DNA from: Promethearchaeota archaeon
GTDB lineage: Archaea > Asgardarchaeota > Lokiarchaeia > Sigyniarchaeales > SOKP01
DNA length: 64,000 bases
NCBI GenBank assembly: GCA_030606485.1
Contig: JAUWGH010000010.1
Coordinates: forward strand, 1 to 64,000
Direction of reading: 5' to 3'
The notes below the pieces were generated by a model. The model was not told the origin of the DNA. It saw nothing but the letters and a program-made list of their open reading frames with translations, and searched no databases. Shown piece after piece: positions 10,501 to 55,597 of the stretch (position 1 is the first letter of the stretch; the number at the start of each line of letters is the position of its first letter). The translations under genes were made by a program, and so were the position numbers.

Positions 10501-13500
10501 ATGTTATAATTCCAACAGTATGAATTATTGGAATAAATAATAGGAATGCTAGGATAAGAAAAGTTAGAGGAAATGGAACAAGAAACAGTAATACAAATCT
10601 ATACTTATCTAAAAGGGGATAGAAAAATAATATTAACACTGAACTAAAAATGAAACAAATAAACATTGGAGACTCTTGAGTAAATGGAAATAATAATGAC
10701 GTAATTGTTAAAGACGTTCCAAACGCCATAATTGTCCAGGGAATTGCTTTATTGAAATTATAAATCATTTTTTCATATCGATTAAAAACGAAGAAGGTCC
10801 CTCCAAATATTGCAATTGCAAAAAATATAGAAAATAGTTCAAGTCCTGGTATAATATAAAACGAGAAGAATGTTAATAAAGAGAAATTTATAATCAAAAT
10901 AATTGAAATAACAAAATGAGTATATTTCTTGTTTAATTTCAGATATTTTGATGAAAACATGCTAAATCCTAAAATAATAAAGGAAATATTAACAGCGATA
11001 AATGGATTGAGAAGAATTGCATATAAGATAAAATAAATTAATAAAAACATTCCAAGCAAAAATGTTGTATATGAAAAAATAAGTATTGTAATTTTACTTC
11101 TTATCATAGGAAAATATGAATAAATCATTGAAAATAGCCCTATAGCGATAAGAACAATAGATGTAATTATCTCGGGCAACATATTTAAAAACATTAAATA
11201 GAAAATTAAAAATACTATATTGATTCCACTTAAAAGAATCCATAATTTTGAAAGAACCTTCCAATACTTTAATTTGTAGATTATAGGCATTAATAAAAAG
11301 ATTGAAATAATTGTAAAAGAAAGATAAGTGAGAAGAAAGTTCTCTCCAAATATATTAAATGTAATCCATGCAACCAATCCAAAGCTTTCAATCCAGAAGA
11401 ATAATAAAATTTGACCAAAGTGTTCCTTAATTTTTGTGTATAGAACGGGTAAATACAACAATGAAGAAATTAAAATTGAAATAATTAATGACCCGTTAAA
11501 ATCTAATGTTCCAAAAAGTGTAAGTGCATTAGTGTATACATCGATATCAAGGAATATTCTATAGATTATGACAAAATTCACGATAGGAAATATATTCCAA
11601 AGCCACCATCCTGCTTTCCAAATTGCCCAAGATATCTTCCATTTATAAATTCCAATTGAAAGATAAAAAAGAAAAATTCCTAGATTTAATGAGATAATTA
11701 GAGGAAGAGGTTCTTCAAGCGGAATCGGTAAATAATATGTAAATAAGAAATATAAAAAGGTAGGAAGAGATATAACAATTGCAGTTAAAAATGTATAGAA
11801 TGAATATTTTCTATATTTCTCAGGAATTTCATTAAATAATAAAACAAATCCGAATCCTGTTATGCTTAAGGTAAAAGTGAAAATTAAAATATTATTAATT
11901 AAATCATCTACAGGGAGTATAAATAAAAATTGATAAGAAATATAGCTAATTACATCAAAAATAATTAATACAATTAAAGTTTTCTTATACAAATGATAAT
12001 TTTTATCCCCAATACGACGAAGGAAAACTGAATAAAAGAATAAAATTATTCCAAGTGAAATAGTGATATTATATAATAGTAAAATATTAGTGAAAGTCAA
12101 GAAAAAGACAAAAGATATTGCAGAAATTGATCCATACAGAATAAATTTTTCAAGATGGAAATGCTTTTTGAGGTTTAAAATTATAGCAAAAAATAATACA
12201 CAAGATAAAGATACTAAATATTCTATAATAAAAAATCCAAGAGGGATCGGCTCAAAAATAGAGAAATCAAAACCTGAATATATATGAAACATTAAATAAA
12301 ATCTTAAAAATGTGATATAACTAAGTAAGAAAATATTTAAAACTCTTAAAATTAAATTTTCATTTCTAACGCGAAAAATTATAATATAAAGAAGAAAGAG
12401 AAAAATGAAAGAAATAAGGGGCTCTATATAAAGAAGACTAATGAAAAGCAATAAATTGAGAGAAAATAATTCAATTAATCGAAATTTAGATTTTCTTTTT
12501 GAATAATAATTTTTTATGAAACAGTAATTTAAAAAAATAAAAATATTCATACATAGAGTTCCAATTAAAATAATTGGATTTTCATTAAAGAATGAAAAAT
12601 TTATTGCAAAACTCCAAAATATTTCAATAAAAAATACAAGAAATGAACCAATAAATGTAAAAATAGTGATATTTTCTATAAGTATTATATACTTATCTAA
12701 TGAAATTCTTGCTTTCTTTAGATATGAAATGGTTATTGGGAATAAAATCGAGAAAATTGCAATAAAAAATGTGATTTTATTAATAATTGAAAATGGCAGA
12801 TAATCTGAAATCAAGAGAATAAGAAATATTTTTACATATAACCAAGAGCCTAATTCTATAATTTCTTTTGTTTTAAAAAAATCTAATCTAAAAACTGATT
12901 CACTTACCTTAAATAAAACTAAAATTGATGAGAAAAAAGAAATAAAATATAAAAAATAATTCAATACAGCAAGATCTGGTGGAAATATTATTATTAAACT
13001 AATAATATTGTGAAATAACAACATCACTAGGTAAGATAACGTAAAAGTAGAACCAAAAAATATTATATTATAGCAAGTTTTTAAAGAACTACTACTAATA
13101 ATCCCCAGTTTTTGCATTTTTTTTAATGTATAAATATTAAAAACGAAAAAAATCAAAATCGATATTGAAATTAAAAACTCATTTATTATAATTGAAAGAA
13201 AAATTACTGACGTTGATATAGAGATAAAAAACCAAACAAATATCTGTGATTTATTGATTAACCTCTGATTAAGTTCTTTATATTTATAACGAATAGATAT
13301 ATATTCTAATAATTTTAAAAAACCAAATATCAAATATAGCGTACAATTAATACCAATTAAAATTAGAAATATACTAAAAAGAATTAACCCTGTATTTAAC
13401 AGATCCAATATGATAATTGTAGGAAGGATAATAATTGAAACCGATAAAGGGATATTATCTATTGCAATAAACTTTTTATACCAATTTTCATGAATTAATT

Positions 13501-24473: not shown

Positions 24474-24947
24474 TTGAATGAAAAGGAAAATAATGTGAAA
24501 GAAAGGAATAAGAAAGAAAACCATAAGAGTTTTTGGAAAAACTATAAGAAAAACTGGATATGGGTTAGTATTGGATTTTGTATATGCAATACATTCATGC
24601 TATGGCTGTTATTTTTTCTTATGATTATTGATTTGATACTAGCGCTCTTTTTTACAGTTTTATTTCCTTTAATGATAATTTTAGTTTATTATGGTAGAAA
24701 ATCAATACACCAAAGGACTATATCTAAAATTATGTTGATAGGATGTGGTGGATTTGGTTTCGGTGTTATTATATGGTTTATTACCGGCTATTTACTTATT
24801 ACTGCTCCTTGGGCACCCTTACAAGCTTTACCTCCAGTGCTAAGAGGTAGAATTTTACTCCTACTTCTACTACCTTTATATGGAATTGCAGCCTATATCA
24901 TGTATAGAATAGGCAAAAAGAGAGAATGGATTCCTTATAATTACTAA
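24474..24947 (+). CDS. small membrane protein, paralogue of 39262-39798
   Basis: Two spans near the start (CICNTFMLWLLFFLMIIDL and LFFTVLFPLMIILVYYGR), then two more separated by the conserved APWAPLQ. The C-terminus MYRIGKKREW matches the protein at 39262-39798 almost exactly, and so does the N-terminal FWKNYKKNWIWV (FWKEFKQNWLWV there). The frame opens at TTG 24474, but an ATG at 24450 with AAGTGA upstream reads MNEIKKGF and would join the frame if the T4 run at 24473 had one more T. The true start is therefore probably 24450 with a one-base shift. The other copy lies next to the halocin-like genes; function unknown. Confidence 0.65.
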   Translation: MNEKENNVKERNKKENHKSFWKNYKKNWIWVSIGFCICNTFMLWLLFFLMIIDLILALFFTVLFPLMIILVYYGRKSIHQRTISKIMLIGCGGFGFGVIIWFITGYLLITAPWAPLQALPPVLRGRILLLLLLPLYGIAAYIMYRIGKKREWIPYNY

Positions 24948-37693: not shown

Positions 37694-37925
37694 GGGGCCA
37701 ATGCAATAGGTCTTAATATTTGACCTATTATTAAAGAAGTAAACTGAACATTTATTTTTTATGGGAGATTACAGTTTTGTGTCAGATAAAAAACTTTAAA
37801 TAAAACCTTAACCAACTGTATCATGTAATACAATAATGCTTCTAAAGGAAAAAATTCGCGTGCATTTGTAAGCGAATTTAATGAATAAAGAAAGGAGCTT
37901 TAAAAGACTTCAAAAAGGTGTTATA

Positions 37926-38336
37926 ATGCAGTTAACTTATAAAAATTCAAATCTAGCTGCATTAGTTATAGCTATTATAATTTGTATAACTTGGATTGTT
38001 TTGGACTATACACCTTTTGTTTGGGGAGTCTTAATTCTGAGTATAATACTTTTTATCGGGTGGTCATTTTTCGAGAACAAGCCAGAAAGACCTTCTAAAT
38101 TTGAAGTTATAGCTCCTTATGTTTCTGGAATAATCTTATTGATAATTTGTTTATTGTTTAACTCCTTGACATATCTTTATATCCCTCTTATATCATTATG
38201 TTGGGCAATATTGTACCATATCACTTTCAAAAAACAAGAGAAGGTAAAAGAAAATAAACCTAGCGAGATAAAACAAGCAGATCGTAAAACAATTACCCCA
38301 AACACTAAAGAAAAGGTGTTAAAAAAAAATATTTGA
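37926..38336 (+). CDS. small four-span membrane protein
   Basis: Start chosen at ATG 37926 because AAAGGTGT lies about 5 bases upstream; the in-frame ATG 37881 has no such site. Four hydrophobic spans (for example AALVIAIIICITWIVLDYT and VSGIILLIICLLFNSL) precede a polar Lys-rich tail (KKQEKVKENKPSEIKQADRK) that should be cytosolic. It resembles small archaeal 2TM/4TM proteins, but no family motif is visible. Convergent with the halocin-like fragment gene. Confidence 0.6.
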   Translation: MQLTYKNSNLAALVIAIIICITWIVLDYTPFVWGVLILSIILFIGWSFFENKPERPSKFEVIAPYVSGIILLIICLLFNSLTYLYIPLISLCWAILYHITFKKQEKVKENKPSEIKQADRKTITPNTKEKVLKKNI

Positions 38337-38356: not shown

Positions 38357-38869
38357 TTAATAAATCTCTAAACACCAATCAATGCATTCTTCCAAAGTCA
38401 TGGAACCTAATCCCCCTTCACATATAACACCATATACGAATTCACACCCTAAAGCAAAAATGAAAGCCCACCCACCAGTCAAAGCGAGTATCAATATAAT
38501 CGTACCGCAAAAAAAACCAGCTATAAGTGCACATCCAAAGACTTGTATAAACCAACATACTGCTATACAATCAGTTTGTCCAAAATCCATTAATTTTGCT
38601 GAACTCTCGATAATCTGTAGGTCGTATTTTGGGAGTTGTTGTTTAACTAAAATGGAGAGAATCCTAATTTTATCCTCCATAATGAAGTAATTTTGAGCCA
38701 GCTGTGCGATACTTTTATCTTCAGAAATTTTATAAGATTTATCGTAGATTTTCCCAATCTTTCTCGCAACTTTACCCAAAATGTTATACATTTCCGATAA
38801 TTTAAAGATCGAATTAAACTCAATCCGTTCAAAAGTATTTATCTTCTTCTCTGTTGGAGTAAATATCAT
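38357..38869 (-). CDS. halocin C8-like Cys-rich module, N-terminally truncated paralogue
   Basis: 170 residues in two parts. The first (FKLSEMYNILGKVARKIG ... LVKQQLPKYDL) parallels residues 315-385 of the protein at 39817-41205. The second, residues 99-170, is a hydrophobic Cys-rich module (TDCIAVCWFIQVFGCALIAG ... ALGCEFVYGVICEGG ... LEECIDWCLEIY) with eight or nine Cys, like the end of that protein and like halocin C8. Minus-strand homology to the longer gene continues upstream to about 38975 (TLLTILNPLNSEFYNKSS) but with a frameshift, and the signal peptide and rhodanese parts are gone. It may be a surviving short gene from ATG 38869 or a decaying copy. Confidence 0.55.
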   Translation of the reverse strand: MIFTPTEKKINTFERIEFNSIFKLSEMYNILGKVARKIGKIYDKSYKISEDKSIAQLAQNYFIMEDKIRILSILVKQQLPKYDLQIIESSAKLMDFGQTDCIAVCWFIQVFGCALIAGFFCGTIILILALTGGWAFIFALGCEFVYGVICEGGLGSMTLEECIDWCLEIY

Positions 38870-38900: not shown

Positions 38901-39326
38901 TTGAGAGGGTTAAGGATTGTTAAAAGAGTAAAATTATATTCATCATTTCAACATCTTGAGCACGGATTTAGCAGGCAAAAACAAGCGATTTTCAATGGAG
39001 TTGCGAAAGGCAATGTCAGTCATATAGTTGTGATCCGTGGAGAAGATTGTTTAAAACTAAAGCATTGTAACGCTGAAGAATTAAATACGGATATTGTGGA
39101 GGAATATTCTGAAGAGGTCGTTAAGAAATTCAGAACTAAATTAAAAGTAGATATTAAAGAAAGAACCAGAACTTGGCGCACGAGGAGCCAACAATATAAA
39201 GATATAAATTTGGCAGTAGATATATATTATCAATGGAATAATAAAAAAAAAGAGGTCGCAATTATGTCGGGTGAGATGAATTTGCAACCTCATATTTTTT
39301 TTTTTCCTTCCCCCCCAAATTATTAA
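38901..39326 (+). CDS. uncertain plus-strand ORF
   Basis: The first 25 codons overlap, in reverse, decayed coding sequence of the halocin-like copy and are probably not meaningful. The middle (NVSHIVVIRGEDCLKLKHCN ... KDINLAVDIYYQWNNKK) is protein-like, with balanced charge. The last 20 codons overlap the gene on the other strand. This could be a remnant of an inserted gene rather than an intact one. No family recognised. Confidence 0.3.
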   Translation: MRGLRIVKRVKLYSSFQHLEHGFSRQKQAIFNGVAKGNVSHIVVIRGEDCLKLKHCNAEELNTDIVEEYSEEVVKKFRTKLKVDIKERTRTWRTRSQQYKDINLAVDIYYQWNNKKKEVAIMSGEMNLQPHIFFFPSPPNY

Positions 39327-39798
39327 GTGGAGGGGAGCTCCAAGTGGAAGGGAGTCTCCATTCTCTTTTTTTTCCTACTCTATACATTATATATGCTCCG
39401 AGTACATATGAAGACACCATAAGTAGGAGATGAATTCTACCTCTTAACACTGCATCCAAAACCAAAACTTGTAAGGGTGCCCAAGGGGCAGCAATAAGTA
39501 CATAGGCGAGAAAAATCCATATAGGACAACCTATACCCCATCCACCAAATCCTACCAATACTATCTTAATAATAATCTTTTGGTGTTTTGATATCCGACC
39601 ATAATACGCTAAAAATATCGCAAATGGGTAAAAAACTGTTAAAAGGATTGCTATCACCAAATTTATAATTCCAAGAGAAAATAACAGCCAAAGCATGAAC
39701 GTTGAGAATATACAACCTCCAATATTAACCCATAACCAGTTCTGTTTAAACTCTTTCCAAAAACCCTTGATCTTTCCTTTTACATTCATTACAATCAT
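39262..39798 (-). CDS. small membrane protein beside the halocin-like gene, paralogue of 24474-24947
   Basis: Four hydrophobic spans with conserved FWKEFKQNWLWV at the N-terminus, AAPWAPLQ in a loop, and MYRVGKKREW after the last span, all shared with the protein at 24474-24947. The paralogue ends a few residues after REW. Here another 28 residues (LPSTWSSPPLNNLGG...) follow, over DNA that looks like a junction, so the true end is unclear. It lies 18 bp after the stop of the rhodanese/halocin-like gene on the same strand. An immunity or export helper is conceivable, but only by position. Confidence 0.65.
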   Translation of the reverse strand: MIVMNVKGKIKGFWKEFKQNWLWVNIGGCIFSTFMLWLLFSLGIINLVIAILLTVFYPFAIFLAYYGRISKHQKIIIKIVLVGFGGWGIGCPIWIFLAYVLIAAPWAPLQVLVLDAVLRGRIHLLLMVSSYVLGAYIMYRVGKKREWRLPSTWSSPPLNNLGGKEKKKYEVANSSHPT

Positions 39799-39816: not shown

Positions 39817-41205
39817 TTAGCAACAACCTAGCATCTGACAAGCAATATAAGTACTTCCAGTCATAAGAAAATATTCTAATCCAAGAATACAGAATGCACC
39901 TGCACCAGGCACAAAGATAATTAAAAGTACACATGCTATGAATCCACCTGCAGCAACAGCAAGTTCACACAAAACACAGTCCCAGAAAGGGTCACCGCCA
40001 AAGCAGCCACCACCGCCAAGGAGGCCACCGCCACCGCCACCATTGGGTGTGTATGCATCAATTATAATTACTGAATTTTGTTGAATTGGTAAATCATATT
40101 CAGAAAGACATTTTTTTACAAGATATGAAAGTTCCTCAGCTTCTTTGTTCATGACCTTATAGTTGTTGGAAAAACCTTTTAACGAATCATCTTCACTATA
40201 TTTATATACTTCTCCAAGTTCTTTAGCTACTTCTCCTATAATATGGTATTGTTGTGATAATTTAACAGGCGAATTGAACTTTACGATCTCCATCGATGTA
40301 ATAGACTTTTCGTCGGCAGGGATATATCTTAAAATCGTGGAAGAACCATTATAGATTTCTGAATTGAGGGAAGTAAGTCTCGTATAAAAAGTCAAATTAT
40401 ATTCTTCATGTTGAGCTAGATAGTTTAGTTCATAAAATTGCGTGGACGTGTCTCCTGTAATGATTTCACTTGAAATGAAAGAAGCAGTTCTTTTGATTTC
40501 ATTTGTGATCTCATTATAACTCCATAGTAAAGTATTGATAATAGTAAACTCATAGGTTATACCATCAAACTCGTATGTTAGGAGAATTACAATATGATTA
40601 TCGTCTTGCTCTAACACTGTGGACGTGATAGTTATGGATTCACTGTTATCTGGGCATTCCTGATTACTGGTGCAGCATGGACAACCTGTCAGATATAGAA
40701 GTAGAGGTTCTATTTGAAGTTTTGGTTTTTCTATTCCATCTACTGTAACATAGTGATAAGTTGTCCAGATCGGGTATTTAACATCTATCCATGCTAGAAT
40801 GCCGCCAAGCATATTGTTGATTTTCGTAAAGCCATAGTTAACTAGGATTTCTGATGCTAATTGACTCCTGTCTCCAGCCTTGCAGTATATTATAATCTCA
40901 TGATTTACGTGATCTTCAATTTCGCTAATTCTTTTTTCAAGTCCATCGTAGGGTATTAAAATGGCATCGTATAAATGACCCTTCTTATACTCATACGGGG
41001 TTCTAACATCCAAAATTATAAGGTTTGGATATTTATTTTCTTTTTTTATCATGTTATAGGCAGTATCCACAGTAATGTTTTGAAAGGTTTGTTCTTCAGC
41101 AGCAACCGTTATTATTAAACTGAAAGATGGTAGCAAAAAGGCAACTATAATGAGCAGAGCTATTGTTTTACGACTTGTATATTTTAAATTAGTTTTTAAT
41201 TTCAT
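39817..41205 (-). CDS. secreted rhodanese protein with C-terminal halocin C8-like module
   Basis: The domains, in order, are: a signal peptide (IALLIIVAFLLPSFSLIITV); a rhodanese domain, residues about 45-150, with LDVRTPYEYKKGH and the active-site loop YCKAGDRS (Cys108); a short Cys segment TGCPCCTSNQECPDN; a beta-rich domain; a helical region (about 315-385); a glycine linker; and a Cys-rich hydrophobic end (401-462) with DCVLCELAVAAGGFIACVLL, FVPGAGAFCILGLEY and IACQMLGCC, eight Cys in all. In haloarchaea the halocin C8 precursor has an N-terminal immunity protein, and its C-terminal peptide contains a similar CxxxxAGGFIC...PVAGLSCLGF pattern. I infer a related antimicrobial or membrane-active peptide precursor fused to a rhodanese. 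An in-operon membrane protein follows. Upstream lies repeat region A. Confidence 0.72.
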   Translation of the reverse strand: MKLKTNLKYTSRKTIALLIIVAFLLPSFSLIITVAAEEQTFQNITVDTAYNMIKKENKYPNLIILDVRTPYEYKKGHLYDAILIPYDGLEKRISEIEDHVNHEIIIYCKAGDRSQLASEILVNYGFTKINNMLGGILAWIDVKYPIWTTYHYVTVDGIEKPKLQIEPLLLYLTGCPCCTSNQECPDNSESITITSTVLEQDDNHIVILLTYEFDGITYEFTIINTLLWSYNEITNEIKRTASFISSEIITGDTSTQFYELNYLAQHEEYNLTFYTRLTSLNSEIYNGSSTILRYIPADEKSITSMEIVKFNSPVKLSQQYHIIGEVAKELGEVYKYSEDDSLKGFSNNYKVMNKEAEELSYLVKKCLSEYDLPIQQNSVIIIDAYTPNGGGGGGLLGGGGCFGGDPFWDCVLCELAVAAGGFIACVLLIIFVPGAGAFCILGLEYFLMTGSTYIACQMLGCC

Positions 41206-42432: not shown

Positions 42433-43518
42433 ATGGTATCTAGAAGAAATTTATCTAAGAAAAAAATTTCGTCCCAAAACATTTCTGTATCTCCTTACCT
42501 TAGAGATTGGGTCGAAAGGTATGTCAAGATGGAACAGAAAAAGAACCCTAACGATAAAAGAGTTAAGAGTATATCCTCCTTTTACAATTATGTAATGGAA
42601 TCTGTTCTAAAAATTTTCGAAAAGGGAAAAACCCTAGATGATTTAGAAATATTTGTGGATAAAAAAGTTCAGAATTTCTATGATAAAATCACATTTAGAG
42701 CGCTAATACCCTACTATGAGCAGATAATCAAAATAAACAAATATCAACCAATAGAATTTGATTGTTTAATAGATCTATTCTTAAAATATAGAAGTTTTCT
42801 TATCGGTAAAAATGAGCCTAGTGATGAGATCGCACTGAATATGATAGAAAGATTTAAAAATTTTATGCTCGCTAATAAATTGACCAAGGATTTCAAGATC
42901 GATATTATAAATAATTCTTATATCATAGAATATTCTGGATATTACCCCAATATACATTATGATCATTCGAAATGGATAGCTGGATTAGCTGGGCTTCTAG
43001 GTCTAAAGATAAAGAATTTGATCATATCTAATAACTTTTTAAGATTATCTCTTGAAAAGACTTCTCTGTTTAAAATTCGAGATTTGGAGATAGAAAGGAG
43101 AAGAGAGCTATTTTATTATAATGTTAATAAATTTACGAACTGGTACAGAGTTATAGATGATCAAACTCAACATCTATGGCTAAAAATGTCAAATAATAAA
43201 GATATAATCATTAATTTCAAGGATGTTACAAGTGGTCTTGAGTTTATAAATTCAATAATAAGAGACTTGGTGGAATATGCCAAAACAGAGAACTTAGTTT
43301 TAGATATTTTAAAATTATTTAGATATTTCCGCTGGATTGACATTGATAATTTTGAAAAACCATCATTTCACTTTTGTGTTGAGGATAAGCACCATCACAT
43401 TATAAGGGAGATGGTCTTTAATATATTACAAAAAATGAAAGTAATAATAAAAGAAGAAAATGAAATATTTTATTTAAACTTGAAACAAATCTCTTGCATT
43501 GACTATACAGTTCTCTAA
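42433..43518 (+). CDS. unknown-family helical protein, possible DNA-binding N-terminus
   Basis: 361 residues. A basic N-terminus (RRNLSKKKISSQNISVSPYL) precedes a helical region (SISSFYNYVMESVLKIFEKG) that could resemble a ribbon-helix-helix or adaptor domain. The remainder mixes helices with a repeated-looking alpha/beta part (IIEYSGYYPNIHYDHSKWIA; HFCVEDKHHHIIREMVFNIL). The start at ATG 42433 fits the spacing after a short leader. Its last 45 bases overlap the convergent radical SAM gene. I do not recognise the family. Confidence 0.6.
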   Translation: MVSRRNLSKKKISSQNISVSPYLRDWVERYVKMEQKKNPNDKRVKSISSFYNYVMESVLKIFEKGKTLDDLEIFVDKKVQNFYDKITFRALIPYYEQIIKINKYQPIEFDCLIDLFLKYRSFLIGKNEPSDEIALNMIERFKNFMLANKLTKDFKIDIINNSYIIEYSGYYPNIHYDHSKWIAGLAGLLGLKIKNLIISNNFLRLSLEKTSLFKIRDLEIERRRELFYYNVNKFTNWYRVIDDQTQHLWLKMSNNKDIIINFKDVTSGLEFINSIIRDLVEYAKTENLVLDILKLFRYFRWIDIDNFEKPSFHFCVEDKHHHIIREMVFNILQKMKVIIKEENEIFYLNLKQISCIDYTVL

Positions 43519-45027
43519 TCTTATCTCATATTTTTTATTCATTTCACTTTCCATTCTTGGTTTAAACAACTCAAAGTTCATTTCGCTTATTTTTATCAAC
43601 GAACGAATTAAATTTTTGGCATATGGAGAGGAGGTAGATACGGGCGATTTAAGAAGTGCTTCCACAAATCTAGAATATACATCTAGAATCTTCTTTTCAC
43701 TTTCGTGATATGCTTTAAATGCGTATTTTAATGCGGAAAATCCTTTCCCTAGATTTTTATGCTCGAATGGAAAGAAACCTTCATGATATACGAATTCAGA
43801 TGGAAGATCATCTCCAAAAATTCTTCCCTCACTTTTAAGTTGTTCGTAAAGTGGCGTCATTGGAAGCGGTTTTAGAGTAGATATGAAATACCAGAGGGAG
43901 TCATATTCTAAATTTCTTTGTATATCAATTTCAATTGTCTTTTTATTATGTATCGGCAACCCAAGAATAAAGTTGTGATTCGTTATAATACCCATATCAT
44001 TAAGCGACTTAATAAAATTGTTATTTAAACCCTTATTCTTTTCGTATTTTTGAAGAGTGGATTCTATTCCATAGTTGACTAACATGAATTTGATAGCAGA
44101 TTCTTCTTGAATTTTTTTAAGGTTGAATGTTTTCAAATGAGAAAGCGAAATTAAACAAATGATATACATATAATTATTATATCTGCTCTTATTTTCAATA
44201 AAATAATCAAATACCTTTTTCCACACACTCTCTGGAAAGCAAGCATTTGGTTCACATAAATACAATATCATATCACCATCATTTGAGGACATTATTTTTT
44301 CTAGAAGTTCTATTATCTTCTTATGATTACTAAACGGATTGTACTGATAAATTGCGGAAGTAATACAGAAATCACATCTAAATGGGCAACCAATCTGGGA
44401 GACCATATAGGCGGTTTTCATATTTGTTAGAAAACTAAATTGATCAGATATAATTGTCGGCATTTTAAAACCTTCCCTGGAAATGGTAGGGAGGTTGAAT
44501 TTTTTACGAAGCCAGTTAATTCCATTCCCAATACATATGTTTTGCGGTTTAATCAATTTTTGTATATAAGGAAATAATACTCCGATACCGCCCGTGTATA
44601 TTTTTTTGTCTGGATAGTCTCTTTGAATCATATTTATCACATCTACGACTTTATTCAACCCATTTGCATAAGTACTTAATCCAATATGTGTAATCTCATC
44701 ATCTTTATCTAGAATATTCTGAGCATTTTGCACGTTGCACACATCATCAATCACAACAGAGTCAATCTCAGGCAGGTTTTCTGCTAGAAAGTGGCCCTCA
44801 ATATTAGGTGAGTTTAATATATTTGCATAAATAGCAGCATTAAAAGGATTTAATTTGTATCCATATTCGTCGAATGCTCTCTGTATTTCCTCCTTATCAA
44901 CATATTGGGGGTAATCATCATATTTTGGATCATTCAAAACTTCCAGAGCAAGATGCTCCGTCGGTTTTAATTCCTTTGAAAGAGTTTTTAAGAATAAAAT
45001 TTTTGGTTTTCTCAATAATAGCACCAT
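43474..45027 (-). CDS. radical SAM enzyme with B12-binding-like N-terminal domain
   Basis: The N-terminal 190 residues resemble a cobalamin-binding Rossmann domain (THIGLSTYANGLNKVVDVIN; KIYTGGIGVLFPYI). The radical SAM core follows with the [4Fe-4S] motif GCPFRCDFC (Cys214, Cys218, Cys221). Later strands include YIICLISLSHLKTFN and NHNFILGLPIHNKKTIEIDI. B12-type radical SAM enzymes methylate, rearrange or crosslink unreactive carbons, including in peptides. The classic B12 His motif is not evident, so the cofactor is inferred. Its stop-side overlaps a convergent gene. The GNAT-like gene 4 bp upstream is surely cotranscribed. The substrate is unknown; nearby Cys-rich peptide-like genes make a peptide target worth testing. 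Confidence 0.8.
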   Translation of the reverse strand: MVLLLRKPKILFLKTLSKELKPTEHLALEVLNDPKYDDYPQYVDKEEIQRAFDEYGYKLNPFNAAIYANILNSPNIEGHFLAENLPEIDSVVIDDVCNVQNAQNILDKDDEITHIGLSTYANGLNKVVDVINMIQRDYPDKKIYTGGIGVLFPYIQKLIKPQNICIGNGINWLRKKFNLPTISREGFKMPTIISDQFSFLTNMKTAYMVSQIGCPFRCDFCITSAIYQYNPFSNHKKIIELLEKIMSSNDGDMILYLCEPNACFPESVWKKVFDYFIENKSRYNNYMYIICLISLSHLKTFNLKKIQEESAIKFMLVNYGIESTLQKYEKNKGLNNNFIKSLNDMGIITNHNFILGLPIHNKKTIEIDIQRNLEYDSLWYFISTLKPLPMTPLYEQLKSEGRIFGDDLPSEFVYHEGFFPFEHKNLGKGFSALKYAFKAYHESEKKILDVYSRFVEALLKSPVSTSSPYAKNLIRSLIKISEMNFELFKPRMESEMNKKYEIRLENCIVNARDLFQV

Positions 45028-45031
45028 AATA

Positions 45032-46039
45032 TTATTTATTTAATTTGTGAATTTTTGTTATTCCCATTAGTATTGCATCCTTTCCATTCAAATAAAATGG
45101 CAGGAATCCATAATATCTGATATTTAGGTTTAGAAGTAAGCTCTGTAATTGTCTATCATTAATATCAATTACAAAGGATAACGAATTAATTTCATCGGTG
45201 TAATAGAAATCGTTTACAATTTTTTTAATTATCTGATATTTTAAATCTAACGGGATATCATTTATGAATCGAAAATCATACCAAGATTTATGGTATTCAT
45301 TCTCGTATAATTGTGCGCATATACCTCCTTTGTTCATTACAAAATTTTCAGTTCGGATTAGAATCTCATATGGAAATCGATCTTCTATCTTTTCTATTTT
45401 AATTTTATACATTTTTTGAGTAGGAGTCGTTGGTAAAAATATTGGCTGAGCAACGATAAGTCGCTTTAAACCATTTTCTTTGATTGTTTTATAGAGATAT
45501 TTGCAAAACGCTATGTATGGAGTTATAAGTTTCCATTTAAAATCATATGATACCCTCCCAAAAATAATAAACGACTTATTTTTATCATGCATAGGAGTGG
45601 TCCCCAGTTTTACAAAATTATGATTTGTAAGTATTTTTAATATTGGAGTATTAGTGCTACTTACAAATGCATATATACATTTAAGATCAGATTCATTCAA
45701 ATTATTTAATACTTGTTCCATATGAAAACTTATGAGTGTCATAACACCTATGCCTTTGTATTTTTGATTCCCCATTGTCAGCTTTAAGAATGCTACGCCA
45801 TGCTTTATTACACTTAGCATCTGTGCGATTAATTTCCCCTTGTAAAAACCCCCCTTCCAAAAAACGTTATTTTTATCAATGTTATCCTTTATATAACTAC
45901 TAATAATTGCTCTTTCGTAGAACTCCTTCTCTGGATACTCATTCCCATATATTTCCTTAATTAAATTAATAATTTCATCTATATCTTCATAGATGATATC
46001 CCTTACTTCGACTTCTCTCAGAATTTTATATTTTTTCAT
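45032..46039 (-). CDS. GNAT-like acetyltransferase, partner of the radical SAM enzyme
   Basis: The first 170 residues have GNAT features: a beta start VEVRDIIYEDIDEIINLIKE, the central strands KGKLIAQMLSVIKHGVAFL, the pyrophosphate-loop-like GNQKYKGIGVMTLISFHME and the final CIYAFVSSTNTPILKILTNH ... FVKLG. The C-terminal half (about 165 residues) is another alpha/beta unit ending FYLNGKDAILMGI, possibly a second degenerate GNAT. Four bases separate it from the radical SAM gene downstream, so the two enzymes very likely share a pathway, the GNAT acylating an amine on the same substrate or product. Confidence 0.7.
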   Translation of the reverse strand: MKKYKILREVEVRDIIYEDIDEIINLIKEIYGNEYPEKEFYERAIISSYIKDNIDKNNVFWKGGFYKGKLIAQMLSVIKHGVAFLKLTMGNQKYKGIGVMTLISFHMEQVLNNLNESDLKCIYAFVSSTNTPILKILTNHNFVKLGTTPMHDKNKSFIIFGRVSYDFKWKLITPYIAFCKYLYKTIKENGLKRLIVAQPIFLPTTPTQKMYKIKIEKIEDRFPYEILIRTENFVMNKGGICAQLYENEYHKSWYDFRFINDIPLDLKYQIIKKIVNDFYYTDEINSLSFVIDINDRQLQSLLLNLNIRYYGFLPFYLNGKDAILMGITKIHKLNK

Positions 46040-46683: not shown

Positions 46684-46708
46684 GTAAAAATATTTTGGGG
46701 TGAAATTC

Positions 46709-47431
46709 ATGAGTGAAAGAATTTATGGGAAAATGCCATTAGATTATAGTGAAATTAAGGAATTGAAAACAATTGCCAAAGTAGAATTAGGATGGGATAA
46801 GGTAATTGGAGAACTGTGGGATTCCTCAAATGCACTTCTTAGAACTGAAATTGCCAATAGAGGAAAAAATAGAGCAAAAATTTTGAAAATGAAGGAAAGG
46901 GAGAAAACTTACAAAAGACGGGAGAAATCATACCATATACTGAGTGTGGGACATCTAAAGAAAACGTTAGAATTGATAGATGAATCAGTAAAAACTCTAG
47001 GAGATGAAAAAATTAACGAGCTAGAAAAAGTAAAAGAAAATGTAGCTCCACTACGTAATGAAGCGTTGGATTTTATTAAAGAGTCTTTGTTGGAAGAAGA
47101 TATTGAACCTGAAATACCAGGTGAAATTGTAGATATTTATGAAGAATTAGTAAAAGTTGTAGAAGCTGATGGTTTTAAGGGATTAGTTAATAATATCAAG
47201 AAAAACCTGAATGAATTAATTGAAATTCGTTCTGATGAATCAAAAAATAGGGGACGTGACGAAAAACATTCTCCACTTCTGTGGTGGAAATGGCTTATTG
47301 TCGCAGGAATTGTTGGGGCGGGAGTGGCTGTACTTATACCGTGCTTGATATGGCATAAATGTTCATGGTTAATAGCAATTGCCAGTAGGGTTGCTTATTG
47401 GATTATTGAAGTTATTAAAACGGGTTGTTAA
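46709..47431 (+). CDS. helical protein with C-terminal membrane and Cys segment
   Basis: Start chosen at ATG 46709 (MSERIYGKMPLDYSEIK) since GGGGTGA lies 5 bases upstream. About 190 residues of charged helices (KTLELIDESVKTLGDEKINE; EIVDIYEELVKVVEADGFKG) are followed by a membrane segment LLWWKWLIVAGIVGAGVAVL and a Cys-containing hydrophobic end (IPCLIWHKCSWLIAIASRVA ... VIKTGC). The layout, a soluble helical head plus a short Cys-bearing membrane tail, parallels the protein at 52027-52857 and loosely the halocin-like genes. A large beta-sandwich protein gene lies nearby in both cases. Toxin or pore-former is possible, but no family evidence exists. Confidence 0.65.
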   Translation: MSERIYGKMPLDYSEIKELKTIAKVELGWDKVIGELWDSSNALLRTEIANRGKNRAKILKMKEREKTYKRREKSYHILSVGHLKKTLELIDESVKTLGDEKINELEKVKENVAPLRNEALDFIKESLLEEDIEPEIPGEIVDIYEELVKVVEADGFKGLVNNIKKNLNELIEIRSDESKNRGRDEKHSPLLWWKWLIVAGIVGAGVAVLIPCLIWHKCSWLIAIASRVAYWIIEVIKTGC

Positions 47432-48180: not shown

Positions 48181-49539
48181 TTATCTAATATTCATAGTAT
48201 GCCAGGTGTAATCTGTTCTGGTGTGGGCTCCATCGCTAATTATCGTCTTATCGCTAACAGATAATCTCAACATGTATGGACCTTTACTTAATCCACTAAT
48301 GTTCCAGATTCCAAGTTGACCGTTGATTACAGGTGTGTGGTTTCCTGTAGGAGGATAAGAAATTCCAGCATTGGTCAATTCCGTTTGGCTGCATCCTACC
48401 CAATGGAGATTATAAGCCATAAAATAGTCGTCAGAAGCAGTGCCTTGAATTTGGATGCTCGTCCCATCAGCTTTATTGAGAATTCCACACGATGCGGGAG
48501 TAGATATTTCGGCTGGTGGAGTAATGGGTGTATTGTGCAGAAATACAAGTTGAGTGTCTTGGAAAGTATTTTCATTTTCATCCCATACAACCAGAATGAC
48601 CGTGTGGATACCTTCTATGTTTTGTGTGTTCCATTTAGCAATTGAGCCATCCCAAACCCGATTTGTTCCTTCTGCAATGGTGGTAAATGGATCAGAACCG
48701 CTCTGACCTAACCGAGGATCGCTGGAATCGATAAATCCTATGCCATAGCTAAGTCTCCATTTAACGACCTTTGCACCCCAAATTCTACCAAATATTGTAG
48801 TATTGCCTCCAAAAGGTCGATCATCGATCCCTCCATAGGAAGCTAGTCCAGATGCTTTAATATCGGCGATGGGTACAGGTCCAACCTTGTTTATTGCAGC
48901 TGTAACATAATCGATCTCTATTGTATACTCCTTTCCTCTGTGATAACAATAGGGAGGACAATCATGTGGGATCCCCCACACATCTTGATCTATTTCAGTC
49001 TCGTGAATGACCACGCCTTGAGGATTTCTGACAGTAAAGATTACATCTGGTAGTGGTATGAAATATCTTATTCTTTCTGGTTCATCTCGATCGAAGTCTG
49101 TATCATCAAACCAAATGTTGAATTCGCCAGCCGCGTCAGTAATATCCTCGTCCAATGGATCTTTATACTGTCCGTCACTATCAAACGCCTTAACAGTTAA
49201 TCCTTGTAAGGGTTCACCACTCATTTTATCTAGAACTCGACCCTTGAGATGCCAATCTTTAGGCGATGGAATGCAGATAACTATCCAATCTGCCACATCT
49301 ACAACTGTACCAACCATAACACCAATTTCTTTGGACGACAGGATAGTGTTTCGATAGGACATTTTGATAAATCTAGGCTTATGTTCAGAACCGCATTCGA
49401 AGTCGAAATTCCCTTGTTTATTTGAGACGGCAGAACCAAGAAAGGTTCCCTTTTCATCGTACGCTTTTACTTTTAACCCTTCCAATGGTTTATCTTTTTG
49501 TCCTAGAATTCTACCTTTAAATCGGTATTTTATATCCAT
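48181..49539 (-). CDS. beta-sandwich protein with carboxypeptidase-regulatory-like repeats
   Basis: GGAGGG six bases before the ATG supports the start. Two N-terminal transthyretin/CarboxypepD_reg-like repeats are visible (FKGRILGQKDKPLEGLKVKA ... NKQGNFDFE; LKGRVLDKMSGEPLQGLTVK ... DAAGEFNIW). A region with IDDRPFGGNTTIFGRIWG follows, the same DRPFGG...WG element as in the protein at 52988-55597, and then an Ig-like end (HTVILVVWDENENTFQDTQL). There is no signal peptide or membrane span. Repeats B and C flank this gene as direct repeats. A structural or binding role is likely; nothing indicates an enzyme. GC content is slightly higher than that of neighbouring genes. Confidence 0.7.
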   Translation of the reverse strand: MDIKYRFKGRILGQKDKPLEGLKVKAYDEKGTFLGSAVSNKQGNFDFECGSEHKPRFIKMSYRNTILSSKEIGVMVGTVVDVADWIVICIPSPKDWHLKGRVLDKMSGEPLQGLTVKAFDSDGQYKDPLDEDITDAAGEFNIWFDDTDFDRDEPERIRYFIPLPDVIFTVRNPQGVVIHETEIDQDVWGIPHDCPPYCYHRGKEYTIEIDYVTAAINKVGPVPIADIKASGLASYGGIDDRPFGGNTTIFGRIWGAKVVKWRLSYGIGFIDSSDPRLGQSGSDPFTTIAEGTNRVWDGSIAKWNTQNIEGIHTVILVVWDENENTFQDTQLVFLHNTPITPPAEISTPASCGILNKADGTSIQIQGTASDDYFMAYNLHWVGCSQTELTNAGISYPPTGNHTPVINGQLGIWNISGLSKGPYMLRLSVSDKTIISDGAHTRTDYTWHTMNIR

Positions 49540-51480: not shown

Positions 51481-52026
51481 AATATTAAAAACATAAAAGT
51501 ATTTCATAGTAAAATATAATAAATGAGTAGAGACATTATATGGAATAAATAATTTCTTTGAGGAATTTCCTTTAATAAGATCTTAAATTTTTATGAGAGG
51601 GATTTTACAATCCCCATAAATATAGAATAAGGTTATTAAAATGGAAGAAAATTTTATATTCGATATTTTAACTAACGCTTTTTTCTATTCTTTCTTAATA
51701 TATCTTTCGACCTAATCTTTAAGATAAAGAGATATGGAAATATTTTAGGAGGTAGATTATTTCCTAGATAAAATTCTTCTGAATACCATATTATAAATTT
51801 TTCAAAAAAATAATGTCATATTACAACTAAAAAAATAAAGCTTTAAAATATTTATATATTTAATTTTTCCATTTAATTTATTTTTTGAACGTTGTTAAAT
51901 CTATAAATTTATGAATATATGCTTTTTAAGGCTCATAATATTGAGGTGCAAGGCTTTCATAGTAATTTTATAATATTTTTTTTTTGTCATATATATTTAA
52001 ATAAAAAAATAAATAAAAATCAAAAT
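51481..52026. other. intergenic with duplicated leader elements
   Basis: Contains ACCATATTATAAATTTTT near 51785, resembling the starts of regions D and E, and the inverted repeat partner of 42258-42340 at 51880-51965. The frame upstream of 52027 is open but low in complexity and is probably leader, not coding. Confidence 0.45.
51880..51965. repeat. repeat shared in inverted orientation with 42258-42340
   Basis: The reverse complement of GAACGTTGTTAAATCTATAA and AAGGCTCATAATATTGAGG aligns with the plus-strand copy at 42258-42340. It is located just before the gene at 52027. Confidence 0.6.
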
Positions 52027-52857
52027 ATGAAATCAAATAAACTTCAAAGAATAGGGAAATATAAATCTGAGAGTGGTGGCGTCATACGCTTTATTATTGA
52101 CATTGACCACGCTAAAGAATACGAATTGGATGAAGCCTTGAGTTTTTTTATTTCAGCTACCAATGATTTTGCAAGAGGTAAGGATCATTGGTTTAATGCA
52201 GATAAAGCGAAAATGCTCAAAAAGCCTGAAAAAGAAACAAAATTTAAAAAGCTATTAATGGAAGACAACGCAAAAGGCTTGGAGAAAGTTAAGAAAGCTA
52301 AAATGCTGATAAAAAAGCCACTTGACAATTTTAAAAATATTGAAAAAAAAATGAAAGTATCACATGAAGAATTTAAAAAAAACATGAACAAACGTGAAGC
52401 AGAGCTTAAAGAAAATTTAATGGTTGCAAATTTATCTCTCGATGAAATAAAAATTATCTTAGAAGAATTTACTAAGAGTAGAAAAATATTTGAAATTGAA
52501 GGAAGACAAGGACTTATTAAACACCTGAGCAATCAATTCGAAGAATTGGAGGAACTTTGCTCTGACCCTAGTAAAGGTTGGAAACGTGCTAGTGTTACAT
52601 GTGTTATTTGTATAATCATCCTGTTAATTTTAGCCATCGGTTTTATCGTGACAACAATTATTATTATTTCGTATATAGTCAACTGGAATACGAAGGAAAT
52701 TCATGATCTGAAAAATGAATCCCCAGCATGTAAAATCGATGAAATGACACCTGAGGGTAAAGAATATTTTAAAACTTTCGAAGAAGCAGACCATTACTTT
52801 AAAAATAAAGGATTTAATGGATGTGCGTGGTGTATGCCCCAATATCATACTGATTAA
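52027..52857 (+). CDS. helical membrane protein with Ada-like C-terminal Cys module
   Basis: Start taken at ATG 52027 (MKSNKLQRIGKYKSESGG); the longer frame to 51919 is AT-rich leader. A head domain (VIRFIIDIDHAKEYELDEAL) precedes a long Lys/Glu coiled coil (about residues 65-170), one strong membrane span (TCVICIIILLILAIGFIVTT) and an exposed end. There SPACKIDEMT, YFKTFEEADHYFKNKGFNGC and AWCMPQYHTD form a Cys...CxxC pattern like the Ada metal-binding module. It pairs with the large beta-sandwich gene 130 bp downstream, just as the protein at 46709 sits near a related beta-sandwich gene. Function unknown. Confidence 0.65.
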   Translation: MKSNKLQRIGKYKSESGGVIRFIIDIDHAKEYELDEALSFFISATNDFARGKDHWFNADKAKMLKKPEKETKFKKLLMEDNAKGLEKVKKAKMLIKKPLDNFKNIEKKMKVSHEEFKKNMNKREAELKENLMVANLSLDEIKIILEEFTKSRKIFEIEGRQGLIKHLSNQFEELEELCSDPSKGWKRASVTCVICIIILLILAIGFIVTTIIIISYIVNWNTKEIHDLKNESPACKIDEMTPEGKEYFKTFEEADHYFKNKGFNGCAWCMPQYHTD

Positions 52858-52987: not shown

Positions 52988-55597
52988 ATGGATGTAAAAA
53001 AGAAAGGATTTATAATTTACGGAAAAGTCTTAGGAAAAGTAAGCAAAAAAGGGATTACTAGCTTGACAGTTGAAGCATTGGATAAAGATCTATTATTTGA
53101 TGATCGTTTGGGCACTGCAATTACTAATAAAGATGGTAATTTTGAAATTCTGTATGATAAAGAAGATTTTCAAGAACTTTTTCTTGATTTAAAACCAGAT
53201 ATATATTTAAGGGTGAAAAATCCAAAGGGAGAAATCATATATACCACAGAAGACAAGATCAAATATGGGGTTATAGGGGTAGAAGAGTTTAATATAGTTA
53301 TTTCAGAAAAATTGATCGAAAAAATAGAAGTTGAAAGCGAAAGGCTACAATTTAAGAAATTAACGGATATCAATCCTAATTACTTTGGAAATATAATCGA
53401 TAAGAAACTCGCAATTCAATATCTCCCTGTATATGAAATGACAAATAATGTTAAATACGAAGAGTTAGTATGCGTGGGTTCTTATCCTGAAGATAATATA
53501 CTAATGGCTATTATTGAAGTAAAATTGCCTTATGGTTATAAGGGATCACTATGTAAAGCAGGTAGCAAGGAATATGTAGGTTTTTATATTGATTACAATG
53601 ATGGCGTCGGTTTTGTAAGTGTGGGCGCAATAACAGAGGTAAATGTTCATGATATTTCTTTTGTTGATGGAGGACATCTTTTTTATGCTGTACGCAAATC
53701 TTTCATTCCCAAGGATTATTTTAAATGCAATAAATCACAAATAGTTAAAGTGAGGGCGATTTTATCTTGGGAACAATTACCAACGGGTCCTAATTTCGAA
53801 CCAGTATGGGGAAATGTTGTTGATACATGGATTCAGATTAAACCAATATATCCAATTTTTTATTCTATCCCCCAATTTAAACTTTTACCAGAAGTAGAAA
53901 TAAAACCTATTGGATTAATTCCTTCTGTTGAAAAGTTTGTAATTGCAGGGGATAAAGAAGAAATTATAGAATTAATAAATAAATCCATCGAAGCGGAAAA
54001 GAGAATAAAAGAAGAAGGAAAAGTTGAAGTAGAGCGGCTTGAATTTAAGAAGATGATTATGAAAAATCCAAATTACTTCGGCTCGATTACTGAATCTACA
54101 GATAAAAATAAGATTTTCAGAGTGATACGCCATCTTCCCCCAGATACTATCAAAATTTTACTCCCTAAACTTACAATTGATCCTAACATGCTTGTACCAG
54201 TAAAATTTTATATTCTGAAAACAATGTATGAAGAATTAAAATGTATCGGACTCTATCCTAATGGTGATCTTTTGGAAGCAGTTATAGAGATTAAATTGCC
54301 GTACGGGTTTAATGGTGATTTATGTACTCTAGGTAGTAAAGAGTATGTTGCTTTTTATATCGATTGGGGTTCAGGTTATAAGCATGTAGCTACATCGACG
54401 GTGGGAGTTCACGACATCCCCGTTGTAAATGATAAACATCTTTTCTATGCCGTAAAGGCAAAAATTCCTAATATAAAATCAAAATTGAAAGATTGTCCTA
54501 TTGAAAATATTGTAAAAGTCAAGGCAATATTATCTTGGAATGAAGACCCAACCCCCTATGGGCATATTTATAAACCAACATGGGGAAATGTATTAATAAG
54601 GAATATCCAGATAAGGCCAAAAGATGGAGTAAGCGTTAAATGTGATATTGAAATTGTCAATGAAGTGCATATTGATGAAATAAGTCAAAGTGGTATTAAT
54701 GAAGGGCTTGCCATTAAGATTGATGCGTCAAACAATGCAGTTCCATTGATATATGATAGACCTTTTGGAGGTATCATTGCATGTTGGGGGAATATAAATG
54801 TTTGGGGTGCAGCATATTACAGATTTAGATATAGCAATGATGAGGGTATTACTTGGAAAAATATTACGGATGAGAGGAAAGCACGTAATACATTTCCTTT
54901 GTTACCTGTTATCACAAGAACTCCAGATAGTAATGGATGGTTTAGTAAGAGTGAATATGATACTGATATAGATAACTATAGTCTTGCTCCCTTGGTACAT
55001 TGGAGGAGTTATGGAAAGGATAATAAATATTTGCTAAAGCTTGAATTAGCAGATGCAGAGAAAAATCCACTTCCTGGACAAACAACTGATGTCTCACTTA
55101 TACTGGATAATAGAGAACCTGAACTTTTTACGTTTGGTGGAACTCCACCCCCAACACTGCCTACTAAAGGTGTTACTGTCAAAGATAGCGAAGGAAATTA
55201 TAAAAAATGTGATGCATTTATCGGAAATAAGGACTGGGAAGTATCTTTAATCTTTATCTATGGTAATTTCAGAGATGACTATTTTAAAAAATTTCGATTA
55301 AAAATATTTGGAGGAAATATTTCAGAGTCTGGTGAACAAATAGGTGAAGAAGTTCGATATGATGATCCAATTCCAGGTGTTGATGAACAAGGCATTATTG
55401 GTGCCATCGATGGAGGACTTGGTCAAGAGATTGGAAATTTAAATTTATGTCCTGATAAAATAAAGTGCGCTTACGGTATAGAACTCACGATTTGGGATAG
55501 ATCGATTGTGGGCTCTGTTAGAGGATATGAATTTAATACATATAATCACGGAAAAGATGCTTTTGTAACCTTTGATTGGGACCCCAAAGGTTGTTAA
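52988..55597 (+). CDS. large beta-sandwich protein with internal duplication
   Basis: 869 residues with GAGGGAT upstream of the ATG. The N-terminus is a transthyretin-like repeat (IIYGKVLGKVSKKGITSLTV ... NKDGNFEILYD). Two copies of an about 200-residue domain follow: YEELVCVGSYPEDNILMAII with EVKLPYGYKGSLCKAGSKEY, and YEELKCIGLYPNGDLLEAVI with EIKLPYGFNGDLCTLGSKEY, each ending in a VHDI...HLFYAV motif. A third part has YDRPFGGIIACWGNINVWG, shared with the gene at 48181. There is no signal peptide, membrane span or catalytic motif. Probably a scaffold or binding protein working with the membrane protein encoded just upstream. Confidence 0.7.
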   Translation: MDVKKKGFIIYGKVLGKVSKKGITSLTVEALDKDLLFDDRLGTAITNKDGNFEILYDKEDFQELFLDLKPDIYLRVKNPKGEIIYTTEDKIKYGVIGVEEFNIVISEKLIEKIEVESERLQFKKLTDINPNYFGNIIDKKLAIQYLPVYEMTNNVKYEELVCVGSYPEDNILMAIIEVKLPYGYKGSLCKAGSKEYVGFYIDYNDGVGFVSVGAITEVNVHDISFVDGGHLFYAVRKSFIPKDYFKCNKSQIVKVRAILSWEQLPTGPNFEPVWGNVVDTWIQIKPIYPIFYSIPQFKLLPEVEIKPIGLIPSVEKFVIAGDKEEIIELINKSIEAEKRIKEEGKVEVERLEFKKMIMKNPNYFGSITESTDKNKIFRVIRHLPPDTIKILLPKLTIDPNMLVPVKFYILKTMYEELKCIGLYPNGDLLEAVIEIKLPYGFNGDLCTLGSKEYVAFYIDWGSGYKHVATSTVGVHDIPVVNDKHLFYAVKAKIPNIKSKLKDCPIENIVKVKAILSWNEDPTPYGHIYKPTWGNVLIRNIQIRPKDGVSVKCDIEIVNEVHIDEISQSGINEGLAIKIDASNNAVPLIYDRPFGGIIACWGNINVWGAAYYRFRYSNDEGITWKNITDERKARNTFPLLPVITRTPDSNGWFSKSEYDTDIDNYSLAPLVHWRSYGKDNKYLLKLELADAEKNPLPGQTTDVSLILDNREPELFTFGGTPPPTLPTKGVTVKDSEGNYKKCDAFIGNKDWEVSLIFIYGNFRDDYFKKFRLKIFGGNISESGEQIGEEVRYDDPIPGVDEQGIIGAIDGGLGQEIGNLNLCPDKIKCAYGIELTIWDRSIVGSVRGYEFNTYNHGKDAFVTFDWDPKGC

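What the first reader, a model, noticed from the sequence alone, without database searches (positions are those of the whole stretch)
39817..41205. Halocin C8-like Cys-rich module fused to a secreted rhodanese
Seen: signal peptide, rhodanese domain with active-site Cys108, glycine linker, then 62 residues with eight Cys and the pattern AAGGFIACVLL...VPGAGAFCILG. Known: haloarchaeal halocin C8 is released from a precursor and has a very similar CxxxxAGGFIC...PVAGLSCLGF pattern. Inference: an archaeocin-like precursor outside the haloarchaea in which a rhodanese replaces or joins the immunity part. A thiol-handling domain beside a disulfide-rich peptide is mechanistically suggestive.
Basis: partly seen in the sequence, partly recalled or inferred. 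Interest (0 to 1): 0.8.

Follow-up and report, generated by a model that had tools for sequence, protein, structure and literature searches.

The report
Asgard swappable toxin-like protein carrying rhodanese
A Lokiarchaeon secretes a protein whose front half is a sulfur-handling (rhodanese) domain and whose cysteine-rich tail is swapped between related genomes together with a neighbouring membrane-protein gene, the pattern expected of a toxin and its immunity gene, in a group of archaea for which the papers searched describe no such weapon.

Summary
The reading of the sequence is right: 462 aa, signal peptide, rhodanese with active-loop Cys108, Gly linker, 62-residue tail with eight Cys. The name is not: neither this tail nor any relative reaches the halocin C8 profile cut-off, and profile comparison with haloarchaeal halocin C8 does not beat Cys-preserving shuffles. 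What is there is more interesting. The gene has relatives with the same head-plus-tail architecture in several Lokiarchaeia and distant Asgard lineages. The head (rhodanese + beta domain + helical stalk) is conserved, up to 97% DNA identity between two genera over long stretches, and the tail is different (33%). The tail travels with the next gene, a ~150-aa four-helix membrane protein: tail and membrane-protein similarity correlate (rho 0.84, p 0.0014, six loci), head and membrane protein do not, and the two trees conflict. Tails without a head, membrane proteins without a tail, and tandem membrane-protein arrays also occur. This is the anatomy of a polymorphic toxin/immunity system. Best reading: a secreted, modular, archaeocin-like effector with a dedicated membrane immunity protein. 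The rhodanese is a conserved carrier of unknown chemical role, not the immunity part. Toxicity, processing and disulfides are inferred.

The parts
39817..41205 (-). Modular secreted precursor, 462 aa
   Evidence: same architecture in G063, G002, G023, G017, G022, G218, G083
41098..41205 (-). Sec-type signal peptide, residues 1-36
   Evidence: sequence reading; hydrophobic segment 14-32
40786..41064 (-). Rhodanese domain, residues 48-140
   Evidence: PF00581 E 5e-15; solved rhodaneses E 5.5e-19
40864..40884 (-). Rhodanese active loop CKAGDRS, Cys108
   Evidence: Cys kept in 9 of 9 rhodanese-bearing genes, Arg in 8 of 9 (G063 has CKSGVIS)
40273..40644 (-). Conserved all-beta middle domain, about residues 188-311, no known relative
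   Evidence: low-confidence model
40051..40269 (-). Helical stalk, about residues 313-385, kept in orphan tails
40006..40044 (-). Glycine-rich linker, residues 388-400 (Pro-rich in relatives)
39820..40005 (-). Variable Cys-rich hydrophobic tail, residues 401-462, 8 Cys
39262..39798 (-). Four-helix membrane protein, putative cognate immunity protein
   Evidence: adjacent to the precursor in 7 genomes; covaries with the tail
38357..38869 (-). Orphan stalk plus different Cys-rich tail, without signal peptide or rhodanese
   Evidence: 39% identity
37881..38336 (+). Convergent membrane-protein gene; possible partner of the orphan tail
   Evidence: shares a 1,050-bp, 97% identical block with the orphan tail in another genome
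37743..38791 (.). Block shared with G003 at an unrelated site, ends abrupt: moved cassette
24474..24947 (+). Solitary paralog of the four-helix membrane protein (orphan immunity)
   Evidence: 59% identity

Best explanation
A polymorphic-toxin-like secreted effector of Asgard archaea. Shown by sequence: a conserved secreted head (signal peptide, rhodanese, beta domain, helical stalk) joined by a flexible Gly/Pro linker to a short, hydrophobic, Cys-rich tail that is replaced between genomes together with the next gene, a small membrane protein. Inferred: the tail is the active peptide, folding as disulfide-linked membrane-seeking helices and inserting into the membrane of close relatives, either after proteolytic release at the linker or while still attached; the membrane protein protects the producer. 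Headless tails with stalk sequence are stored cassettes that recombine into the expressed gene through the shared stalk, and solitary membrane proteins give protection against neighbours. The rhodanese is a conserved part of the carrier; it may hold or transfer persulfide/thiol on the tail cysteines until export, but this is a guess.
For: Same architecture followed by the same membrane protein in different genera and in a distant Asgard lineage. Tail-to-membrane-protein distance correlation rho 0.84, p 0.0014; head-to-membrane-protein 0.16, p 0.33; head-to-tail -0.13 (six loci); with ten pairs 0.38, p about 0.02. Membrane-protein tree groups G023, G017, G022a, G218 (bootstrap 90), exactly the four with GC...C...FC..C type tails, while the head tree puts G017 with G001/G002 (98) and G218 with G083 (85). 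G002 vs G017, two genera: codon identity 0.82-0.98 over residues 96-365, then 0.33 in the tail. G002 vs G001: head dS 0.05, tail 0.41, membrane protein 0.09. Orphan tails, a moved orphan block, solitary and tandem membrane-protein genes; the membrane protein is in 31 of 228 genomes. A different tail type (G083) is followed by an unrelated small membrane protein.
Against: No toxic activity, processing or disulfide is shown, and no known toxin profile matches. Tail and membrane-protein gene are adjacent, so joint inheritance by linkage alone could produce their covariation. With G218 added, head-to-membrane-protein correlation rises to 0.49 (p 0.08) and tail-to-membrane-protein falls to 0.46 (p 0.03), so the Mantel contrast rests on few loci. 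No export or maturation gene is conserved next to the locus. One relative (G063) has lost the active-loop Arg, and orphan tails lack the rhodanese. Structure models have low confidence.
Confidence: 0.62

Rival explanations
1. Kin-recognition or signalling pair: the variable tail is a surface or released ligand and the membrane protein its matched receptor, without killing.
For: Covariation and hypervariability fit a ligand-receptor pair as well as a toxin-immunity pair; the authors of the Thermococcales VARTIG study raise the same alternative for a similarly organised module (PMC8416519).
Against: Tandem arrays and solitary membrane proteins in genomes without a precursor fit stacking of immunities better; the membrane protein has no signalling domain or sizeable soluble part.
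Confidence: 0.17
2. Secreted housekeeping rhodanese with a C-terminal membrane anchor: the tail only tethers the enzyme to the outer face of the membrane, and the membrane protein is its partner.
For: Strongly hydrophobic tail (segment 423-441) and predicted helices; catalytic Cys kept in 9 of 9.
Against: An anchor needs no invariant Cys and no replacement together with its neighbour; tails exist without rhodanese; the gene is patchy, 12 of 228 genomes.
Confidence: 0.12
3. A true halocin C8 family member fused to a rhodanese.
For: Similar size, Cys content, hydrophobicity and net charge -4; three of 18 family tails have TIGR04449 as best NCBIfam match at 9-16 bits, against 0 of 36 shuffles.
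Against: Cut-off is 24 bits and the window tail does not match at all; 16-19 bit matches to TIGR04449 elsewhere in Asgard genomes look like chance; hhalign 4-10%, within Cys-kept shuffles, and 0.2% for the second tail type.
Confidence: 0.09

Closest known systems
Polymorphic toxin systems (CdiA/CdiI, Rhs, and archaeal counterparts)
   Same: Conserved secreted N-terminal part, variable C-terminal tip, immunity gene directly downstream, orphan tips and extra immunity genes, recombination at the tip boundary
   Different: Head is a rhodanese with a new beta domain, only about 400 aa, no known delivery or toxin domain; tip is a ~60-aa Cys-rich hydrophobic peptide rather than an enzyme; the putative immunity is a four-helix membrane protein
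Halocin C8 / TIGR04449 (ProC8)
   Same: Secreted precursor with C-terminal hydrophobic Cys-rich peptide of 60-76 aa after a non-toxic N-terminal part
   Different: Profile not met; Cys spacing differs; Sec rather than Tat signal; halocin C8 immunity is the N-terminal part of its own precursor (PMC11509114), here probably a separate gene; no rhodanese in the halocin C8-like precursors read here
VARTIG modules of Thermococcales (PMC8416519)
   Same: Archaeal locus with a secreted protein of hypervariable C-terminus, shuffled by recombination and followed by small membrane proteins
   Different: Immunoglobulin domains instead of rhodanese/beta/stalk; no Cys-rich tail described; another archaeal phylum
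PspE/GlpE-type single-domain rhodaneses
   Same: Rhodanese domain match and C-[KR]-x-G-x-R-S active loop
   Different: Part of a multi-domain secreted precursor with a replaceable C-terminus

Membership tests
Halocin C8-like domain (TIGR04449) | Score above curated cut-off of 24 bits | tested here: not met
   No match for this tail; best relative tails 15.9 and 15.2 bits; 0 of 228 Asgard genomes over cut-off
Halocin C8-like domain (TIGR04449) | Profile-profile relation to haloarchaeal halocin C8 beyond Cys pattern | tested here: not met
   hhalign 4-10% probability; shuffles keeping Cys columns reach the same score; second tail type no signal
Halocin C8-like domain (TIGR04449) | Antimicrobial activity of released C-terminal peptide, N-terminal part as immunity | not testable with these tools
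   Needs bench work; genomic evidence points to a separate immunity gene
Polymorphic toxin system | Conserved N-terminal part with variable C-terminal tips | tested here: met
   G002/G017 head 77% aa identity, tip 27%; DNA identity drops from 0.94 to 0.33 across the linker
Polymorphic toxin system | Cognate immunity gene directly downstream, matched to tip type | tested here: met
   Adjacent four-helix gene in 7 loci, covarying with tip; trees conflict with head. Protection itself untested
Polymorphic toxin system | Orphan tips and extra immunity genes | tested here: met
   Orphan tips in window, G022, G063, G002, G003, G172; solitary or tandem immunity-like genes
Polymorphic toxin system | Tip is a known toxin domain, or toxicity shown | tested here: not met
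   No Pfam or NCBIfam toxin match for any tip; toxicity not testable here
Rhodanese | Domain match and active-site Cys loop | tested here: met
   PF00581 E 5e-15; CKAGDRS; enzyme activity untested

The most novel reading that the evidence does not exclude
A previously undescribed class of polymorphic toxin confined to Asgard archaea, in which a secreted rhodanese acts chemically on the toxin itself (for example persulfide protection or transfer on the tail cysteines), so that sulfur chemistry controls the arming of a swappable disulfide-rich membrane peptide that is exchanged between Asgard genera.
Probability: 0.2. Interest if true: 0.88.

Novelty: new variant of a known kind. Interest (0 to 1): 0.63.

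Why it matters
Asgard archaea are the closest known prokaryotic relatives of eukaryotes, yet the full-text searches made here found no description of an antagonism system of this kind in them. This locus gives a concrete, small, testable candidate: matched pairs of a 60-aa tail and a 150-aa membrane protein with natural swaps as built-in controls. It also documents exchange of gene segments between Lokiarchaeial genera, and a rhodanese in an unexpected place, opening the question whether sulfur transfer is used to arm peptide toxins.

Tried and rejected
Halocin C8 membership: NCBIfam scans of 18 tails and Pfam scans of 14, TIGR04449 over 65 and 228 genomes, hhalign with shuffles and a shuffled-sequence control; rejected. 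The TIGR04449 matches in other Asgard genomes that I opened (L110, L112, L048) fall in unrelated reading frames or genes and look like chance. Structure search: two AlphaFold models with only 7 sequences, mean pLDDT 49.6 and 54.5; Foldseek against PDB gave nothing with E <= 0.001; not used as evidence except that the tail is predicted helical (pLDDT about 55-76 in the full-length model, lower in the second). Middle domain against solved structures: no credible match. Viral contigs: no relative, so no sign of a viral carrier. A role for the radical-SAM gene at 43474-45027 was considered and dropped: it is not seen next to the relatives. The convergent gene 37881-38336 as second immunity type: only one recent shared block, and its other homologues sit without tails, mostly at one conserved chromosomal site; left open. 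The 2019 survey of archaeal antimicrobial peptides and polymorphic toxins (mBio e00715-19) is not held in the library, so prior mention there could not be excluded.

Full report
OBSERVATION. The ORF at 39817-41205 on the minus strand encodes 462 aa. It has a Sec-type signal peptide (residues 1-36), a rhodanese domain at 48-140 (PF00581, E 5e-15; closest solved chain 6mxv, E 5.5e-19) with the loop CKAGDRS and Cys108, a middle region, a Gly linker at 388-400, and a 62-residue tail with eight Cys. Background Cys in the window is 1.38%, so eight in 62 residues has P 2e-6 per stretch, and several of these Cys are invariant in relatives.

WHERE IT IS. The window lies in a 3.75 Mb genome, contig C3. 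The closest public relatives are all Candidatus Lokiarchaeota MAGs; contig lengths identify G002, of the window's genus, with isolate 2R3_4, so this is a Lokiarchaeial (Asgard) genome. No relative was found in the viral contigs.

RELATIVES. Searching 65 genomes of the family with the C-terminal third gave nine genomes with matches. Rhodanese + beta domain + stalk + linker + Cys-rich tail recurs in G063, G002, G023 and G017; two copies in G022 are cut by contig ends after the stalk, and G001 is cut at the other end. Across 228 Asgard genomes the family is also in G218 (44% GC locus; rhodanese loop CRSGYRS), G083 (loop CKTGARS), G222 (truncated head) and G172 (orphan stalk plus tail). The rhodanese Cys is kept in all nine rhodanese-bearing genes and the loop Arg in eight (G063 has CKSGVIS). 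Distribution is patchy, 12 of 228 genomes.

THE NEIGHBOUR. In the window the stop of the precursor is 18 bases from the start of a 178-aa protein with four hydrophobic segments. The same family follows the precursor in G063, G002, G001, G023, G017 and G218. It also occurs alone (window 24474-24947), in tandem arrays (G001:C115, G017:C49, G047:C4, G036, G058) and next to headless tails (G022:C35, G001:C76 at a contig end, remnants in G063 and G059); 31 of 228 Asgard genomes have it. In G083, with a very different tail, an unrelated 118-aa membrane protein takes this place.

SWAPPING. Pairwise identities: G002 and G017 share 77% of the head, 27% of the tail and 39% of the membrane protein; window and G063 share 39% of the head but 56% of the tail. 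A Mantel test on six loci gives tail vs membrane protein rho 0.84 (p 0.0014), head vs membrane protein 0.16 (p 0.33), head vs tail -0.13. With ten pairs including headless tails and G218, rho is 0.38 (p about 0.02); adding the outlying G218 to the six gives tail vs membrane protein 0.46 (p 0.03) and head vs membrane protein 0.49 (p 0.08). By alignment score G218's tail is nearest to G023, G017 and G022a in that order, and so is its membrane protein. The membrane-protein tree groups these four with 90% support, while in the head tree G017 is with G001/G002 (98%) and G218 with G083 (85%). At DNA level G002 vs G017, two genera, are 0.82-0.98 identical over residues 96-365, dropping to 0.68 at the linker and 0.33 in the tail. 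G002 vs G001 has dS 0.05 in the head, 0.41 in the tail, 0.09 in the membrane protein. These look like recombination mosaics with a breakpoint at the stalk/linker.

ORPHAN CASSETTE IN THE WINDOW. 38357-38869(-) encodes a stalk plus another Cys-rich tail, 39% identical to the main gene, with no signal peptide or rhodanese. Together with the convergent membrane-protein gene 37881-38336(+) it forms a 1,050-bp block 97% identical to G003 at an unrelated chromosomal site; the flanks do not align. In this pair the tail has more replacement than silent change (dN 0.08, dS 0.02; few sites).

MECHANISM. Best explanation (0.62): polymorphic-toxin-like secreted effector. Shown: modularity, replacement of tail with neighbour, orphans, extra neighbour copies. 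Inferred: the tail is toxic, it acts on membranes (hydrophobic, GRAVY 1.5, predicted helices, partner in the membrane), the neighbour is immunity. Not known: whether the tail is released; linkers are Gly- or Pro-rich and vary in length without a conserved cleavage motif. The rhodanese is retained with its catalytic Cys, so a chemical role is plausible (persulfide or thiol protection of the tail), but one copy lost the Arg and orphan tails lack the domain. A caution: tail and neighbour are adjacent, so linkage alone gives part of the covariation.

HALOCIN C8. The tail resembles halocin C8 in size, Cys content and charge but fails the family test: no TIGR04449 match here, relatives at most 15.9 bits against a cut-off of 24, hhalign 4-10% and within Cys-kept shuffles. 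The mature halocin C8 sequence used as query was recalled from memory; the search with it found annotated halocin C8-like proteins at up to 58% identity, which served with it as the comparison set. Three of 18 tails have TIGR04449 as their top NCBIfam model and 0 of 36 shuffles do, so a remote kinship is not excluded, but matches of 16-19 bits elsewhere in Asgard genomes look like chance. It may work like an archaeocin; it is not shown to be a halocin C8. In halocin C8 the immunity is the N-terminal part of the same precursor (PMC11509114); here the evidence places immunity in a separate gene.

PRIOR KNOWLEDGE. No paper in the held library links Asgard archaea with halocin C8, and searches on Asgard with bacteriocin or polymorphic toxin, and Lokiarchaeota with rhodanese, listed none whose title or abstract describes such a locus. 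The nearest described archaeal arrangement is VARTIG of Thermococcales, also likened to polymorphic toxins (PMC8416519). The 2019 survey of archaeal peptide toxins is not held, so prior listing of single members cannot be excluded.

Noticed in passing
window 46700-47431 (+): 243-aa protein, long charged helical part then one hydrophobic C-terminal segment with three Cys (LIPCLIWHKCSW...IKTGC); superficially like another tail-bearing precursor but without signal peptide.
   Followed up: no
window 51919-52857 (+): 312-aa protein with charged helical part, one strong membrane segment and a Cys-containing C-terminus, between two larger proteins at 48181-49539 and 52988-55597.
   Followed up: no
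window 43474-46039 (-): Radical-SAM protein of the HpnJ/BchE type (weak matches) and, directly upstream on the same strand, a 335-aa protein with no family match; two-gene unit near, but not conserved with, the precursor.
   Followed up: partly
window 7592-15751 (-): 2,719-aa protein that is almost entirely hydrophobic, with very many membrane segments.
   Followed up: no
L101 2653-3129 (+) (G001:C115): Very Cys-rich C-terminus (GCGVPGAVVYVLTCGSICGPSGPGFPVCAVICGTICAAMV...) upstream of three tandem four-helix genes; another possible tail type.
   Followed up: partly
L020 (G002:C359), 227-490 of the reverse complement: 88-aa hydrophobic reading frame with nine Cys upstream of a four-helix gene; possible further tail type.
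   Followed up: no
L068-L078: Homologues of the convergent gene 37881-38336 sit at a fixed chromosomal site between conserved genes in several genomes of the genus, some with internal stops; the cassette copy may derive from it.
   Followed up: partly
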